From NCBI RefSeq assembly GCF_024679095.1, contig NW_026111822.1, positions 262,501 to 326,500 of the forward strand: DNA of 64,000 nucleotides, given 5' to 3'. The stretch is from Eriocheir sinensis (taxonomy: Eukaryota; Arthropoda; Malacostraca; Decapoda; Varunidae). Under the pieces are notes generated by a model that saw only the letters and a program-made list of their open reading frames with translations, was not told the DNA's origin and searched no databases. A program made the position numbers and the translations under genes. Below are positions 5,690 to 54,712 of the stretch, in pieces. Numbering within the stretch: the first letter of the stretch is position 1; each line of letters opens with the position of its first letter.

Positions 5690-6320
5690 TCTGTATAGGT
5701 TCGTGGTACAGAAGAAGGGTCAAACTACTACCAGGGTCATAAGAGTACCCATGGAAATGCCGGGAACGCCTACGAAAGCCTTGTCAAATGTGTGTTTCTT
5801 TAGGTTCACGGTACAGAGGAAGGGTCAAACTACCACCAGGGTCATAAAACTACTCCTGGAAATGCCCACAACTCTTACGAAAGCCTTGTCAAATGTGTGT
5901 TTCTTTAGGTTCACGATATAGAGAAAGGGTCAAACTACCACCAGGGTCATAAGAGTACCCATGGAAATGCCCGGAACTCCTACGAAAACCTTGTCAAATG
6001 TGTGTTTCTTTAGGTTCACGGTACAGAGGAAGGGTCAAACTACCACCAGGATCATAAAACTACTCCTGGAAATGCCCACAACTCTTACGAAAGGCTTGTC
6101 AAATATGTGTTTCTTTAGGTTCACGATACAGAGGAAGGGTCAAACTACCACCAGGGTCGCCGGGAACGCCTACGAAAGCCTTGTCAAATGTGTGTTTCTT
6201 TAGGTTCACGGTACAGAGGAAGGGTCAGACTACCACCAGGGTCGCCAGGAACGCCTACGAAAGCCTTGTCAAATGAGTGTGCTGTGTAGGGCGCCGAAAT
6301 GTTTAGGTATATGGCTCCTG
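5690..6320 (+). mobile_element. MITE-derived tandem array (about 6 units)
   Basis: The repeated phrases GAAGGGTCAAACTACCACCA, GGGTCATAA and CTTGTCAAATGTGTGTTTCT recur roughly every 100 bp, alternating CCCATGGAAATGCC and CTCCTGGAAATGCC. It ends GGCGCCGAAATGTTTAGG like the MITE right end. Confidence 0.75.
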
Positions 6321-17167: not shown

Positions 17168-20083
17168 TCAGTACACCACCCGCTCCATCTTGCCCGAGAC
17201 CACGGACTTTTCGAGCGTCGAGGCGATAGTGGACACCCTGAGCGTGTTGTCGCCGTTTACGCTGAGGTCGTCCAGGCCTGCGGAGACAGAGCGGGGTGGG
17301 GTTACCATGGCTCGGGGCGCGGCGGGGCGGGGCGGGGCGGGGCTAGAATTAACATGGTGCAGAACAGGAAGTGGCTGGCAGATGCGTGGATTATGATAAA
17401 AAATAAAATCCAGTATTACAGATGTCTACGTTTCATATTTTTCAAAAGTACAAACAGCTTGATGATGTAAGAGTTCCAGGCACACCAACGCAACCGAAAA
17501 ATCGAGACCGTCGTTTCCAGATTGTCGTACTCCTCATCTTATGTTTGCCGATTTTCGACCTAAAAACTGTCCCCTTCACCCCCAAAACTGGCTTCATATA
17601 AAATTATCGATAAAATGGTTAATTACTGGTGTTTCTTGACAATTGTTGTGGCTCAGAAACCGGTAAATACGATGCTCTGAGTACGATAATCCGGCAATGG
17701 GGAATTTGAGATATTGACAATCCGGGCTGACTCTACGGGGTGTGAACGCTTAGTCTGAGGTGCTGTGAGAATGTGCTGCGACAAAAGTGTTCCTCGCGCA
17801 GTGCTGGGAAAAAAGGGCACAAATGTCTGAATAAGTGAAGATAAGTGACTTTCAGGTTAGAAAATAACGTAACACTGAAAAGGAAAGTGTGGGAATGAGA
17901 AAAAGGGAGGAACGAGAGGAGGAGGAGAACCTAAGAAGCGATACAATGCGTTACAGGTCAAAAGGAGAAGAAGACTCGACCTCGTGTGTGTGGTGCATCG
18001 TGTCGTGTCGCCCCGTCTCACCCTGATAAAGAAACACCTTGTCTCAGCCTCTTAGTGCCCCGTCTCACCCTGATAAAGAAACACCCTGTCTCAGCCTCTT
18101 AGTGCCCCGTCTCACCCTGATAAAGAAACACCCTGTCTCAGCCTCTTAGTGCCCCGTCTCACCCTGATAAAGAAACACCCTGTCTCAACCTCTTAGTGCC
18201 CCGTCTCACCCTGATAAAGAAACACCCTGTCTCAGCCTCTTAGTGCCCCGTCTCACCCTGATAAAGAAACACCCTGTCTCAGCCTCTTAGTGCCCCGTCT
18301 CACCCTGATAAAGAAACGCCCCATCTCAGCCTCGTAGCGCCTCGTCTCACCCTGAAGAAGCGTTTTGTCTAACCCTCTCAGTGCCCCCTCTCACCCTCCA
18401 AGTGCCCCGTCTCACCCTGAATAACGTCGCAGAAGTGGTCGAGCTCCCTGATGTAGCCTTGGTGGTAGCGGGACGGGAAGGAATGGTAGACTGGCGGCCT
18501 CGTCTCGCCCTGCGCCGTGGACGTCGTCATCGGGAAGGGCCGCTCGTTGCCCGCTGACACCATGCCCTTGGGCCCAAACACCTGAAGGAAGAGTGTCTCA
18601 ATGGGAAAGAATCAAACCCTAAGGCACTTAAGACTCGATATTACCAATCACCAACATCATCATCATCATAAGCATCCGCAGTCAGCCATCTTTACCAGAC
18701 TTCATGACAAATATACTTTTCCCAACGATCTTCACCTCTCTGCCTGATGTTATACTCCACCCAGCCCCGGCAAAGGTTTTAAACTCATGCCCCCACCTGC
18801 TTCTCTGTGTGCCTTGCCTTCAATAATTTCTGGTTTGCCATTTCGCTGTTTTGGTCGTTTATCAGTTCTACATTTGACCTGCCTAAGTCCACTTCCCATT
18901 CTTATTTGTCACTGTCATATCTTCAACTTTTGTCTTCTTCCTAATTCATGATCCTAGTTGCTCCCCGTCTCTCTGTCTTAACCTGCTGTATGTCACAACT
19001 AAGGTAAATAAAATAGGTCTGACATCTCCATAACCCGACACAATCGCCTAAGATCATTCATAATTCCTTGCTTAGCTCAACTGTTATACGAGATGGGCAA
19101 ATTTCCTTGACACCATTATATTAAACTAGTCGTCTTTTCTTAATCTTTAACCCCTTGACTACGGATTTCCTACCAGAAGACCTCACCAAGCTACAGGAAT
19201 GGAACAAAAAATGACTGCTACAATTCAATGAAAAAAATGTAAAGTCCTGCATCTTGGGAGGGGATATCCAGCATACCAGTACCACATGGGAAACACTCAG
19301 ATATCCAGCACAGAGGCAGAGAAAGACCTGGGACTATATGTTACCAGGCTACCAGTGAAGGCCAAGACAGTACCAATCGCAGCGGATGGGTTAACGCTTT
19401 CTCTAAATATTTCACGACGTGCCAAATTTTTAATCCGTATTACTAAAGAGGATTATAGAGACAGCATCAGCGAGCTACCTCCAGCCGTTGGTCATATCCG
19501 TAGGCTGCGTTGCGACTGATGTCCGTCATGGAGAGAGCCCCCGACGGGAACTTCATGGTGAACGCCACCGTGTCATGGTCGTTGAGGGCGGCCACCTCGG
19601 GCAGGAAGGTGGTGGCGGAGGCGAACACGTGCGTCGGGTATTCCCCCAACACCCAACACGTAAGGTCGATGTCGTGAACTGCGCAGTCGTGGAAGATGCC
19701 GCCTGGGAAGGGTTGTGAGTGAGTGGTGATTTTGTGTTTGCTTAGAGGAGGAGGAGGAGGAGGAGGAGGAAGACGACGACGAGAAGAAGAAACAACAAGA
19801 AGAAGAAGAAGAAGAAGAAGAAGGGAAAGAAAAATGAAAAAGAGAAAAAAGAAAAGAGAAAAGAAGAAAAAGAAAAGAGAAAGAAGAAAGAGAAATGAGG
19901 AAGATAAAAAAACAGAGAAAGAAAAAGAAGAAAATAGATAAAAACAAAGAGTGATTTCTAAGAGACATCATTATAAAGAAACAAAGAGGAGGAGGAGGAG
20001 GACAAGAGGAGATTAATTAGGAGAAAAAAAATATAAAACTAACATGAAAAACAAGACGATAAAGAAGACGAAAGAAAATAAAG

Positions 20084-20139
<56 letters not shown>

Positions 20140-22506
20140 GATATCTTGAGGTAGTCGATGCTAGGGAGTGGCGAATCCCTGGCCACCGTCTTGACCATAT
20201 GTACCTGACCCACTGTCCCCTTATGCACCTCCTCCCGCAAGTGGCAGAAGCTGGGGTCGAACCGGCGATTGAAGGCACAGAGCAAGGGCCGACCAACCTG
20301 AAGGGGGGGGGGGGGGGGGTTAAGCGGAGAACAGAGAAGAAGAGGAGGTATCAGCGTACAATGGTGACAGAAAGAACAGTAGTTGGTGAGGAAGAAGGAG
20401 GATGAGGATGAGGATGAAGAGTAGGAAAAGAAGGAGGAGAAGGAGGAGGAGGAAGAGGAAGAGAAATGAAAAGACGATTACTATTGGAGATAATTATAAG
20501 GAATCACAAACATAATGAAGGTTAAGAAAATATGAATGAGGGAGAAGGGAAAAAACAAGAACAAGGTCAAGAAGAACATGAACAAAAAGAAAAAAAACTG
20601 GAAAAACAAGAACAGGAAGAAAAACAGGATGTAGAAGAAGAAAAGAACAAGAAAAGAACAGGAAAAAGAACAAGAAAACAGCAGGAGGAAAACAGAACGA
20701 GGGGATATGAGAGGAGACACACCACCCACCCACCTGTTCCGCAAGCTGGTAGCAAAGTTTAGTGTCCTCGAAGTTCTCGGCAACAGGCTTCTCACAGAAC
20801 ACAGCCTTGCCCGCCTTGAGCCCGCGCATCACCAGGCCTTTGTGCATGAAGGTGGGGGTAGCGATAATGATGCCGTGCACGCTGTGGGGAGGCGTTACTT
20901 GGCCTTAGCACAGTGTCTCGTAGCCTGGGTAGTTGCGGCGTCATGGCGATACCCCACTCAGTCAATCAGCCACCGTGTTCCGTATGTGCTTTTCCCCCCG
21001 TCAAAGCACCGTTGCCAGATTGTCGTACTCAGAGCATAGTATTTACCGGTTTCTGACGCCTAACTATTGCCGAGAAACATCAGGAATTAACTATTTTAAC
21101 GATAATCATAAGCGGATCTCCTCATTGGGGTCCACGAGACAGTTTTTGTGTCGGAAGTCGGTAAATATAAGAGGCTGAGTAAGACAATCTCGCACCGTTG
21201 CGTTAAAGGACCTTATATCCCTTTATTTTCTTAACATCAGAAGTTTATACGGATATTTCAGTGTAGATTTTAGTCTACATCTACCAGAGCACCCTTAAAG
21301 AATGGAGTAGTAAGCACTTGAGCCAAATCACCACGCAATCTACTCCCTTTCAACCAATGCAGATTAAGCTTCTTTGATCTTTCTTTGCACGGTAAGATGC
21401 TAAGATTGGTATTGTTAAACGCTTCCGCCTCTCACATTAACCATTGCTAAAGACCGTAAAGGAGCTCAGTCGGGCTATAATGAGTGTTTCTTTAGGGTTC
21501 ACGGTACAGAAGAAGGATTACGCTACCGCCAGGGTCACAAAACTACCCCTGGAAATGCCCACAACTCCTACGAAAGCCTTGTCAAATGTGTGTTTTTCTA
21601 GGTTCGTGGTACAGAAGAAGGCTCACACTACCACCAGGGTCACAAAACTACCCCTGGAAATGCCCACAACTCCTACGAAAGACTTGTTAAATGTGTGTTT
21701 TTCTAGGTTCGTGGTACAGAAGAAGGCTCACACTACCACCAGGGTCACAAAACTACCCCTGGAAATGCCCACAACTCCTACGAAAGCCTTGTCAAATGTG
21801 TGTTTTTCTAGGTTCGTGGTACAGAAGAAGGCTCACACTACCGCCAGGGTCACAAAACTACCCCTGGAAATGCCCACAACTCCTACGAAAGCCTTGTCAA
21901 ATGTGTGTGCCTGTGTGTTGAAATCTTTAGTGATGCAGCCCTAAGACTTTACGTCAGTGAGGTCGGCGTGAAATTTACGTAGAGTTTCTTTCGGTTCGGG
22001 ATCTTTCACCGGGAGGCATGATAGAGCTCACCTGGAGTCATTTTGGAAGCTAATTTTGTATCATTAGAGGACTCTCGTGCAGCAGTAGCATCACAGAGCG
22101 CTAACCTTGGGTCCTTGAAGACGATCTCGTCCTGCTCGGGGGACAGCAACTGGTCCTTGGAGAGCCGCCACTCGTCGCCGACCTTCTGCAGCTTCTTCGT
22201 GTCGGGCTCCACGATGTACTTGAGATTCGTCCGCTGGCTGCTCATGATGTTGTTGAGGTGGATGGAGCCTGGGGAGGGATTGCAGAAGGGCGGTCAGGCA
22301 AGGCTCTCTGCAGACTGTTCAACCTCTTAATTTCTGCCGCAGTGTTGCTTGACTTGCCGTATTTAGCAGCCTCGGTAGAAATGATGGTATTGTTTTCAGA
22401 TTGGTGTTATTTTTTTATTTTTTTTTTTTTTTCCTAGCATATTAAAATTTATGCGGATGATTTTTTTTAATGTGTTTTTGATGTGTTCGCGTTTTGTGTA
22501 TGTTAG

Positions 22507-22556
<50 letters not shown>

Positions 22557-23876
22557 CTGTGCGTGTCTGTCACATCGAAATGACCAGTGGTGTTCCCTAA
22601 GAGTTATAATTATTCTACTTCAATCCCTCAATCACCTCCCCCTTCACCCGTCTCCCAATCCCCCCCTACCCCTTCTGACCTCCACTCTCCCCACCAACAC
22701 CGTCACCTAATCTCTACCTCCCTTCTACTCCCCCGCCCCACCTCCCGTCCCCCAACACATTCCCTCACCACCCCAAACACTAATCTTCTACTCTCCCTCC
22801 CTTCCAACCCTCCACCCACCCTCCACCCTCCCCTTCAACCGCACTTCTTCCAGTTCCAATTCTCTAATCTGTAACATCGTGTCGAGCTGCAGAAGGAAGT
22901 ATATAACGTTCATCGCGCGCCACATCTCACCTGCGCGGCCGAGAGCGAAGAGTGCCACGTTGACCACCTTGAGATCCTCCTGCACGGGGTTGTTGTACTT
23001 CTTGACGGCTGTGGTGAGACCCGCGCCGATGAGGTACCTGCGACCACAGCCTTGTTAGCGCGAGGGGAGAGGAGGAACAGAAAAGATAATCGGAAAGAGA
23101 AGGAGAAACAGAGACAGCAGAAAAAAGAGCGACAGAAGAAAAAGACAGAAGAAACAGATACATGAGCAGAAGAAACAGAGAGACAGCAGGAGAAACAGAG
23201 AGATAGAGCAGAAGCAGAGAGACAGAGGAGATGTGACGGATAGATAAGGGAGAAAAAGACAGGCGTTAGCAGTGGCGAACAGACGGAAGAAAAGAGTGAG
23301 TCGTGGAGCTGAGCGGACGTGTGTTGTCTTGCGCCGTGCGGAGAGTGCAAGGCCAGGGGCGTAAGGGATTTGTGTTACGTTGAGGATTGGATGCTGTTTG
23401 TGTCCTAAATGGTGTCAAGTGAAATGTGCTCACTTGTCTAGAATTGAGCAGAAGAATATACCTAAAATTAATTGGATCTGCGACCCATGCCTTCATAAAG
23501 CATCTCTGGCTACCAAAATTGTGGAGAAATTGGATGATGGAAAGCGCTGACAGACTGACCAGTGGGAAAGAAGAAAGATCATCCCACGAAGGAGATCATT
23601 GAAGCACAGAAGGAGTAACAGACAGACCAGGAAACTAGGAGATCCATCCCATCAAGCGCTGACAGACTGACCAGTGGGAAAGAAGAAAGACCATCCCACG
23701 AAGGAGATCATTGAAGCACAAGTCACAATAACGATAACAACAACAATAGCACCAACACCAAAACTTAAGTAATGAGGGTTCCCTGCTTACCCCTGATGCT
23801 TGTAGTCGGTGACGTGGGCAACCTGCTTCCCGCAATTGTACGGGGACGTCGTCTCCGCGAACTTAACCGTCGCCAT
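17168..23876 (-). CDS. Gfo/Idh/MocA-family NAD(P)-dependent dehydrogenase (inositol 2-dehydrogenase-like / YrbE-like), 8 coding exons
   Basis: Coding exons, in transcript order, are 23876-23791, 23037-22931, 22268-22106, 20881-20734, 20297-20138, 19702-19479, 18581-18416 and 17277-17168. All introns are GT-AG, phases join cleanly, and the total is 1164 nt (387 aa plus stop). The protein starts MATVKFAETT. After an extension of about 50 residues comes a Rossmann nucleotide-binding motif, VNVALFALGRAGSIH (residues 54-68). The family EKP motif is at 149-151. GGIFHDCAVHDID at 222-234 supplies the conserved Asp227 and His231, which with Lys150 match the Lys/Asp/His triad of inositol dehydrogenases. 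These enzymes oxidise a sugar or cyclitol hydroxyl with NAD(P)+. No signal peptide or membrane segment is seen, so it is probably cytosolic. The substrate is inferred; a glucose-fructose or other polyol dehydrogenase is possible. The first Gly of GxGxxG is Ala60. A CAG acceptor at 23890-23888 implies a noncoding 5' exon further upstream. MIOX lies divergently about 15 kb away. Confidence 0.92.
17509..17700. mobile_element. MITE (family GTTGCCAGATTGTCGTACTC) in dehydrogenase intron 7
   Basis: The left end CGTTTCCAGATTGTCGTACT and the reversed right end CATTGCCGGATTATCGTACT match the copies at 21.0 and 29.2 kb. Confidence 0.6.
18011..18420 (-). repeat. 47-bp minisatellite abutting the exon 7 donor of the dehydrogenase
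   Basis: Plus-strand units begin CCCCGTCTCACCCTGATAAA at 18011, 18058, 18105, 18152, 18199, 18246 and 18293, then degrade at 18340 and 18382. The final GTCTCACCCTGA (18409-18420) is the real exon-intron junction. On the transcript strand each unit carries TCAGGGTGAGAC, the same sequence as the functional donor. Confidence 0.9.
19160..19365 (+). mobile_element. LINE reverse transcriptase remnant in dehydrogenase intron 6
   Basis: The plus strand gives LPEDLTKLQEWNKK, a stop, LLQFNEKNVKSCILGG and, after a frameshift, MGNTQISSTEAEKDLGLYVT. This matches the thumb-proximal block of non-LTR reverse transcriptases (DLxxLxxWSxKWLLxFNxxKCKVMHLG ... EKDLGV). It lies in the sense opposite to the host gene. 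Confidence 0.65.
20087..20137 (-). repeat. (CA)n microsatellite forming the start of dehydrogenase intron 5
   Basis: On the transcript strand intron 5 begins GTGTGTGT and consists of about 25 GT units directly after the last exon base at 20138. Confidence 0.95.
21007..21202. mobile_element. MITE (same family) in dehydrogenase intron 3
   Basis: Arms of about 50 bp start CCGTTGCCAGATTGTCGTAC and reversed CGGTGCGAGATTGTCTTACT. Both run to ATTTACCGG/ATTTACCGA. Confidence 0.65.
21475..21920 (+). mobile_element. MITE-derived tandem array (4 units) in dehydrogenase intron 3
   Basis: Four units of about 105 bp contain AGAAGGCTCACACTACCACC, AGGGTCACAAAACTACCCCT and GTCAAATGTGTGTTTTTCTA. One frame stays open for 166 codons across them, but this reflects the repeat and not a gene. 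Confidence 0.75.
22511..22553 (+). repeat. (GT)n microsatellite in dehydrogenase intron 2
   Basis: About 21 GT units. A long C/T-rich stretch (22620-22850) follows, still within the intron. Confidence 0.95.
23540..23725 (+). repeat. Direct repeat pair in dehydrogenase intron 1
   Basis: GCGCTGACAGACTGACCAGT, then GGGAAAGAAGAAAGA and CATCCCACGAAGGAGATCAT, occurs at about 23546 and again at 23657. Confidence 0.7.
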
Positions 23877-27690: not shown

Positions 27691-28222
27691 TAAACTGAAT
27701 AAACTTCGGCCAAATCCGCGGCGATAGGTCAAAATTTGGTGTTGCCTCGATGGGATTAAGTGCAAAAAAAAACTGAATAAACTTTAGCCAAATCCGCGGC
27801 GATAGGTCAAAATTTGGTGTTGCCTCGATGGGATTAAGTGCAAAAAAAAACTGAATAAACTTTAGCCAAATCCGCGGCGATAGGTCAAAATTTGGTATTG
27901 CTTCGATGGGTTTAAGGGCTGTATTTTAAGACACCATCGCTTCTCGCATCAACTATTTCTAAAGGTCAAAGAGGGGATCAATCTGTTTTTCATGAGTGTT
28001 TTTTAAGGTTCATGGCACAGAAGAAGGGTCAAACTACCACCAGGGTCATAAAACTACCCCTGGAAAGGCCTACAGCTCCTACGAAAGCCATGTCAAATAT
28101 GTGAACTTGGGCGACGAAATGTCTTAAAAATACGTCCCAAAGTGCAAAAAAAAAATGAATAAACTTCGGCCAAATCCGCGGCGATAGGTCAAAATTTGGT
28201 GTTACTACGATGGGTTTAAGTG
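27690..28222 (+). repeat. 76-bp minisatellite, split by a MITE
   Basis: The unit has GCCAAATCCGCGGCGATAGG, TCAAAATTTGGTGTTGCCTC and GATGGGATTAAGTGC. Three copies precede and one follows the 223-bp MITE. Confidence 0.85.
27916..28138 (+). mobile_element. MITE (family GGGCNGTATTTNTAAGACA), 223 bp, inside a minisatellite
   Basis: The left end GGGCTGTATTTTAAGACA and reversed right end GGGACGTATTTTTAAGACA are terminal inverted repeats. The body carries AGAAGGGTCAAACTACCACC, AGGGTCATAAAACTACCCCT and CTACGAAAGCC. It splits the 76-bp array at 27.69-28.22 kb. Confidence 0.7.
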
Positions 28223-29209: not shown

Positions 29210-29413
29210 CAGCGTTTCCAAATTATCGTACTCAGCGCATTGCATTTTCCTAGTTTCTGACCGATAACTCTAGCAAAAGAGAGCGAAAACCATCACTCTT
29301 TAACAGTTTCAACGATAACTTTAATTTTCTATCGTTGTTTGTGTGGTTACGACGGTCTTCAAGCCTAAAAAGGATAAACCCAGTGCTCAGAGTACGACAA
29401 TTTGGCAACGCTG
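29210..29413. mobile_element. MITE (same family), intergenic
   Basis: The ends are CAGCGTTTCCAAATTATCGT and reversed CAGCGTTGCCAAATTGTCGT, about 204 bp overall. Confidence 0.65.
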
Positions 29414-31954: not shown

Positions 31955-32173
31955 TGGGCCGTATTTCTAGACATTTCGTCGCCAAAATTCACATATTTGA
32001 CAAGGCTTTCGTAGGAGTTATGGGCATTTCCAGGAGTAGTTTTATGACCCTGGTGGTAGATTGACCCTTCCTCTGTACGGTGAACCTAAAGAAACACTGA
32101 TTAGAACCCGATTGGTCCCCTCTTTGACCTTTAGAAATAGTTGTTGTGAGGAGCGAAACTGTCTTATAAAACC
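31955..32173 (-). mobile_element. MITE (same family), reverse orientation
   Basis: The plus strand starts GGGCCGTATTTCTAGACATT and ends AACTGTCTTATAAAACC. The body has the complement of the GGGTCAAACTACCACC unit. Confidence 0.65.
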
Positions 32174-32189
32174 GATCATCATAATAGGT

Positions 32190-32625
32190 CGGTATTATAA
32201 GAAGGGTCAATCTAGCACCAGGGTCATACGACTACTCCTGGAGGTCAAAGAGGGGGGCAATTGGGTTCTGATGAGTGTTTCCTTAGGTTCATGGTATAGA
32301 AGAAGGGTCAATCTAGCACCAGGGTCATACAACTACTCCTGGAGGTCAAAGAGGGGGGCAATTGGGTTCTGATGAGTGTTTCTTCAGGTTCATGGTATAG
32401 AAGAAGGGTCAATCTAGCACCAGGGTCATACAACTACTCCTGGAGGTCAAAGAGGGGGGCAATTGGGTTCTGATGAGTGTTTTCTTAGGTTCATGGTATA
32501 GAAGAAGGGTCAATCTAGCACCAGGGTCATACAAGTACTCCTGGAAATGCCCACAACTCCTACGAAAGCCTTGTCAAATATGTGAACTTGGGCGACGAAA
32601 TGTTTAGCGATACGGGCCTTGTTTG
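32190..32625 (+). mobile_element. MITE-derived array of about 92-bp units
   Basis: Four units carry GAAGGGTCAATCTAGCACCA, GGGTCATACAACTACTCCTG and GAGGTCAAAGAGGGGGGCAA. The last runs into the normal MITE right end (GGCGACGAAATGTTTAGCG). Confidence 0.75.
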
Positions 32626-54604: not shown

Positions 54605-54712
54605 TATGAGCGTTTTTACAAGTTCATTGCGCAGAGGAAGGGTCAGACTACCACCAGGGTCATTAAACTACCCATGGAAATGCCCCAAACACCTATGAAA
54701 GCCTTGTCAAGC
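54605..54712 (+). mobile_element. Single MITE unit truncated by a retroposon
   Basis: GAAGGGTCAGACTACCACCA, CATGGAAATGCCCC and AAAGCCTTGTCAAG match the family. The right end is missing. Confidence 0.6.

What the first reader, a model, noticed from the sequence alone, without database searches (positions are those of the whole stretch)
18011..18420. Minisatellite built from the splice donor: eight decoy 5' splice sites after exon 7
The 47-bp unit contains, on the transcript strand, TCAGGGTGAGAC, identical to the real exon 7 junction (CAGG|GTGAGA). About eight extra copies lie in tandem at 47-bp steps just inside the intron. Retaining intron to any decoy adds about 10 codons and then a stop, removing the last 35 residues. 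This is a natural array of competing donors whose copy number could tune splicing.
Basis: seen in the sequence. Interest (0 to 1): 0.75.

Follow-up and report, generated by a model that had tools for sequence, protein, structure and literature searches.

The report
Splice-donor minisatellite in a crustacean gene
A short DNA repeat that includes copies of a gene's splice signal sits right after one exon of a crab-like animal's metabolic gene; it is real, but the same kind of repeat is already known in human genes and the correct splice signal is the one seen in use.

Summary
On the minus strand, the penultimate exon (exon 7) of an inositol-2-dehydrogenase/YrbE-like gene, probably of a decapod crustacean, ends at 18416 with CAGG|GTGAGAC. 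Just inside intron 7 a 47-bp minisatellite (18010-18397, 8.3 copies) repeats that border. CAGGGTGAGA occurs 9 times in the 64 kb, all here: the real donor plus 8 decoys at +65, +112 ... +394. Corrections: the first exact decoy lies 65 nt, not 47 nt, downstream. A tenth donor of equal computed strength at +21 (18395) was missed; it adds 7 codons in frame with no stop, in a loop of the modelled protein. Farther decoys give 11 new codons and a stop, losing 35 residues. A database protein that reads as a spliced transcript joins exon 7 to exon 8 at the real donor; no decoy isoform was found, a weak test. Human ABCA7 is the same kind of locus: its array starts at the donor, and unit retention (about 2%) does not depend on length. 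I judge this a recent, mostly tolerated repeat expansion from the exon border with low leak to the nearest decoys: a new member of a known kind. Copy-number tuning is untested and not favoured.

The parts
18010..18397 (-). 47-bp minisatellite (21-bp donor half + 26-bp half), 8.3 copies, in intron 7
   Evidence: TRF; units listed; 6 internal units: 4 identical, 2 with one substitution each
18368..18418 (-). 21-bp tandem copies that include the real donor (perhaps the older part)
   Evidence: TRF period 21, 2.4 copies; half-units
18416..18581 (-). Exon 7 (penultimate), 166 nt, ends ...GTTATTCAGG
   Evidence: residues at the junction compared with homologues
18414..18415 (-). Real splice donor GT of intron 7
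   Evidence: junction agrees with protein P0001
18393..18394 (-). Nearest decoy donor GT (exon end would be 18395, +21): in frame, adds ETGHLEG, no stop
18020..18350 (-). Eight exact decoy donors; exon ends would be 18351, 18304, 18257, 18210, 18163, 18116, 18069, 18022
18378..18380 (-). Premature TGA met by read-through to any of the donors at +42 and beyond
17278..18415 (-). Intron 7, 1138 nt
17168..17277 (-). Exon 8 (last), ends in TGA; encodes the last 35 residues
17168..23876 (-). Inositol-2-dehydrogenase/YrbE-like gene (Gfo/Idh/MocA), coding part, 8 exons
   Evidence: Pfam; PDB relatives; decapod homologues; exon 1 ATG at 23876

Best explanation
It is an intronic minisatellite that arose by tandem duplication of the exon 7/intron 7 border, probably first as 21-bp copies and then as a 21+26 = 47-bp dimer that recently expanded to about eight copies. 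It works like the human ABCA7 and CBS exon-border VNTRs. The spliceosome still uses the first donor, the one that ends the real 166-nt exon, in nearly all transcripts. The copies leak at a low rate, mainly the nearest (+21 in frame, +65 with a late stop), and leaks to more distant copies make RNAs with an early stop. Array length by itself probably does little to donor choice. Shown: array, homology to the border, equal donor sequence, coding consequence of each donor, one transcript-like protein with the real junction. Inferred: tolerance, leak rate, order of events, transcript origin of the protein.
For: Array and border homology. The exon side is coding and largely conserved: the junction Gly is present in 16 of 16 sequences read, P0001 included, and Gln-Gly in 14 of 16; Gly in 24 of 25 aligned (P0024 has Asn). 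So the exon is the likely source and the array the copy. P0001 (387 aa; longest contig 2087 bases; open across all 8 exons of a 6.7-kb span) reads VIQG|LDDL, i.e. uses the donor at 18416. None of the 25 aligned proteins (chosen from 120 listed) has the insertion that the +21 donor would give; P0016 has one extra residue. A search aimed at the read-through tail returned 4 proteins, each covering 73% of the region and none the tail. The six internal units carry 2 substitutions in 282 bp, i.e. recent expansion or homogenisation. ABCA7: unit retention not length dependent.
Against: No RNA reads could be examined. P0001 stands for a 90% cluster of 14 member sequences, so minor isoforms could be hidden, and RNAs with early stops may be decayed. 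P0001 differs from the window at one residue, so it may come from another individual or a close species with another array. Computed RNA accessibility does not favour the real donor: 0.0098 against 0.0073-0.0492 for the ten other sites. Equal donor strength means the preference for the first donor must come from context, which was not tested. For a duplicated intron 7/exon 8 junction in human CBS (844ins68) the more distal copy is strongly favoured (passage). Recalled, from no call: in vertebrate extracts the intron-proximal of several equal donors is often preferred.
Confidence: 0.7

Rival explanations
1. Copy-number-tuned donor competition: U1 binds many copies, and more copies divert more transcripts to truncated or unstable isoforms, setting enzyme level.
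For: Eight exact decoys plus the +21 site with the same computed U1 pairing as the real donor; donors at +42 and beyond truncate the protein and remove the last predicted helix, residues 360-379.
Against: Real junction in the one transcript-like protein found; no decoy isoform found, a weak test; in ABCA7, with about 12 to 427 copies, unit retention did not depend on length.
Confidence: 0.1
2. The array acts as an intronic splicing enhancer: its many GGG runs help recognition of the upstream donor, so it supports rather than competes with correct splicing.
For: 25 runs of GGG or longer in the first 420 nt of the intron (the array) against 2 in the other 718 nt. Mutating G triplets near the 5' end of human alpha-globin intron 2 is said to reduce splicing (passage seen in PMC6193652).
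Against: Reported in vertebrates; no evidence here for arthropods. The G runs come with the repeated border, so they need no function.
Confidence: 0.1
3. Ratchet-like array: each unit joins an acceptor-like TTTCTTTATCAG to a donor, so the intron could be removed stepwise or units spliced out as mini-introns.
For: In the 4 of 8 units examined the tract before the AG has 9-10 pyrimidines of 17, like the real acceptor of the exon at 20881 (10 of 17); the other five real acceptors tested have 12-17.
Against: Drosophila ratchet points are AG|GT (passage, PMC8605326); here it is AG|G|GT, one base off, so each step would shift the frame. A single-unit intron would be 46 nt, and the whole intron is only 1138 nt.
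Confidence: 0.03
4. Copy number in this assembly is an artefact (collapsed or expanded array).
For: Near-identical 47-bp units are hard to assemble; nothing here checks the count.
Against: Two variant internal units and distinct end units argue for a real array, though not for its exact length.
Confidence: 0.05

Closest known systems
Human ABCA7 intron 18 25-bp VNTR (PMC5954066; passages, section 21 read)
   Same: Tandem array immediately inside the intron; its first GT is the real donor of the exon; use of a copied donor retains one unit and leads to a stop.
   Different: Unit 25 bp there, 47 bp here; copy number known to vary there (about 12 to 427), unknown here; the downstream exon can be skipped there, here it is the last exon; here the nearest decoy is in frame.
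Human CBS 31-bp VNTR c.1444_1467+7(16_21) (PMC2630376, passages)
   Same: By its name the unit spans the exon/intron border (24 exonic + 7 intronic bases), so each copy would carry a donor.
   Different: Shorter unit, more of it exonic, 16-21 copies, polymorphic in people.
Introns formed from tandem arrays (Zhuo et al. 2007, PNAS; not held; only its title in reference lists was seen; content recalled)
   Same: Tandem units that carry splice signals.
   Different: Here the exon 8 acceptor is not part of the repeat; unit matches in the window lie only at 18010-18419.
Recursive-splicing ratchet points, Drosophila (PMC8605326, passages)
   Same: Acceptor-like tract next to a donor in each unit.
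   Different: One base between AG and GT; short intron; tandem array.

Membership tests
Exon-border VNTR with repeated donor (ABCA7/CBS kind) | Tandem array adjoins or includes the real donor | tested here: met
   21-bp array 18368-18418 includes the donor; the 47-bp array follows
Exon-border VNTR with repeated donor (ABCA7/CBS kind) | Units carry copies of the donor | tested here: met
   8 exact CAGGGTGAGA copies besides the real one
Exon-border VNTR with repeated donor (ABCA7/CBS kind) | Minor isoform that retains one or more units | tested here: inconclusive
   None among the 4 proteins returned by a targeted search of 90% clusters; no RNA reads available
Exon-border VNTR with repeated donor (ABCA7/CBS kind) | Copy number varies between individuals | not testable with these tools
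   One sequence only; the genome search gave no answer
Recursive-splicing ratchet point | Acceptor AG directly followed by donor GT | tested here: not met
   TTTATCAG|G|GTGAGA, one base between
Intron gained from a tandem array | Both ends of the intron lie in repeat units (recalled definition) | tested here: not met
   Unit matches only at 18010-18419, not at the acceptor at 17278
Gfo/Idh/MocA oxidoreductase, inositol-2-dehydrogenase-like | PF01408 and PF22725/PF02894 domains above the cut-off | tested here: met
   66.1, 90.1 and 62.2 bits against cut-offs 24, 27 and 22.9; the enzyme activity itself was not testable

The most novel reading that the evidence does not exclude
The array is a heritable dial: decoy number sets a steady fraction of alternative 5' splicing, with two outputs, a tolerated isoform with 7 extra residues in a loop (+21 donor) and truncated or unstable RNAs from the other decoys, so that array length tunes enzyme level between individuals.
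Probability: 0.07. Interest if true: 0.6.

Novelty: new member of a known kind. Interest (0 to 1): 0.33.

Why it matters
It offers a natural competition test of about ten donors of equal computed strength in an invertebrate gene, free of the disease setting of ABCA7. If the first donor wins, exon context rather than donor strength decides; if not, repeat length would be a simple way to vary expression. It also raises the question how often arrays seeded at exon borders occur in repeat-rich crustacean genomes.

Tried and rejected
Chance: rejected, all 9 CAGGGTGAGA sites of the 64 kb are here. RNA structure hiding the decoys: not supported, computed accessibilities of the decoys lie on both sides of the real donor's. 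A special link between donors and repeats in this gene: 2 of 6 donors tested (exons 2-7; exon 1 not tested) adjoin a tandem repeat, but 24.6% of positions in the gene span have a repeat within 10 nt on that side, so about 1.5 are expected. Ratchet points and tandem-array intron gain: defining features not met. Search of the window's own genome: no answer in six tries of the same request. Papers: ten searches on CBS, tandem arrays, donor competition, VNTRs, G triplets, crab genomes, recursive splicing and tandem repeats with crustaceans; no listed title or abstract start described a crustacean case, but the library holds open-licence papers only and the lists were capped. One search listed no study of many equal donors by title.

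Full report
What is there. The window is probably from a decapod crustacean: the best named relatives of the gene's protein are Chionoecetes opilio (76%), Cherax quadricarinatus (73%) and Petrolisthes cinctipes (71%). The gene lies on the minus strand, coding part 23876-17168, and encodes a Gfo/Idh/MocA oxidoreductase of the inositol-2-dehydrogenase/YrbE-like kind (Pfam; PDB relatives such as 4hkt and 3ezy). Seven exons were placed by consensus splice sites and give one open frame of 339 residues.

The array. TRF gives a 47-bp period at 18010-18397 with 8.3 copies and a 21-bp period at 18368-18418 with 2.4. In transcript sense the unit is CAGGGTGAGACGGGGCACTAA + GAGGCTGAGACAGGGTGTTTCTTTAT, a 21-nt half and a 26-nt half whose starts resemble each other. 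Four of the six internal units are identical and two carry one substitution each, which points to recent expansion or homogenisation. The donor is intact in all 8 exact copies. In the seven 26-nt halves the matching place reads CT instead of GT in 6, and GGTTGAG in one.

Origin. The real border aligns with the nearest 47-bp unit over 12 exonic bases (one gap, one mismatch) and 31 intronic bases. The exonic bases encode D-V-I-Q-G. The Gly is present in 16 of 16 sequences read and Gln-Gly in 14 of 16; in the larger alignment Gly is kept in 24 of 25. Conserved coding sequence is therefore the likely source and the intronic units the copies. This order is an inference.

Donors. The real donors of exons 2-6 range from -5.6 to -12.7; exon 1 was not tested. 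Local RNA accessibility does not set the real donor apart: 0.0098 against 0.0073-0.0492.

Consequences. The +21 donor inserts ETGHLEG in frame. The donors at +42 and beyond meet a TGA at +36 to +38, giving 11 new residues and losing the last 35. In the AlphaFold model of P0001 (mean pLDDT 84.3, 25 sequences) the junction residue Gly352 follows helix 334-350 and lies before the last helix 360-379. The +21 isoform would thus lengthen a loop, and the others would lose the last helix; whether either is stable was not tested. Distances from the stop to the exon 7-8 junction are 4 and 27 nt for +42 and +65, and 74 nt or more for the rest. By the 50-nt rule for nonsense-mediated decay (recalled, mammalian) the first two would escape and the rest would be targets; arthropods may differ.

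Which donor is used. P0001 (source tag 'lgn', 3 contigs, longest 2087 bases, cluster of 14) is open across all 8 exons, whose genomic span is 6.7 kb, so it must come from spliced RNA (inference). It reads VIQG|LDDL, the real junction. It differs from the window's translation at one residue (KVGGEW for KVGDEW), so it is the same or a very close species. A search with the read-through tail found only P0001 and three relatives, each covering 73% of the region and none the tail. This is weak evidence: clustering at 90% could hide minor isoforms and decay could remove them.

Known cases. Human ABCA7 has a 25-bp VNTR whose first GT is the exon 18 donor. Retention of one unit exists, at about 2% if the paper's two frameshifting isoforms are given in the order it lists them, and is not affected by VNTR length; skipping of exon 19 is. 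Human CBS has a 31-bp VNTR named c.1444_1467+7(16_21), which by that name spans a border. The present locus is the same kind in an invertebrate. On the other side, for a duplicated intron 7/exon 8 junction in CBS the same paper says the more distal site is strongly favoured, so duplicated splice sites need not favour the original. No title or abstract start listed in my ten paper searches described a crustacean case.

Verdict. The most testable new point is the missed +21 donor, which would give a stop-free isoform with 7 extra residues.

Noticed in passing
20086-20138: The donor of exon 5 runs straight into a (GT)26 microsatellite: ATATCAG|GTGTGTGT. Each GT is a possible shifted donor; a second donor in this gene that adjoins a repeat, though 22% of the window is tandem repeat.
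   Followed up: partly
5696-6280, 21496-21908, 28006-28103, 31990-32088, 32201-32584, 54632-54710: A dispersed minisatellite family with a unit of about 105 bp, in single copies and arrays and on both strands.
   Followed up: partly
17640-17700, 21009-21069, 29222-29268: A short dispersed element; the two other copies are 85% and 81% like the first and in the opposite orientation.
   Followed up: no
18497-18512: Inside exon 7, CAGGGCGAGACGAGGC (coding QGETR) resembles the donor repeat, with C for T at the GT; chance or an older copy.
   Followed up: no
17278-18415: 25 runs of three or more G in the first 420 nt of intron 7 (the array) against 2 in the other 718 nt.
   Followed up: partly
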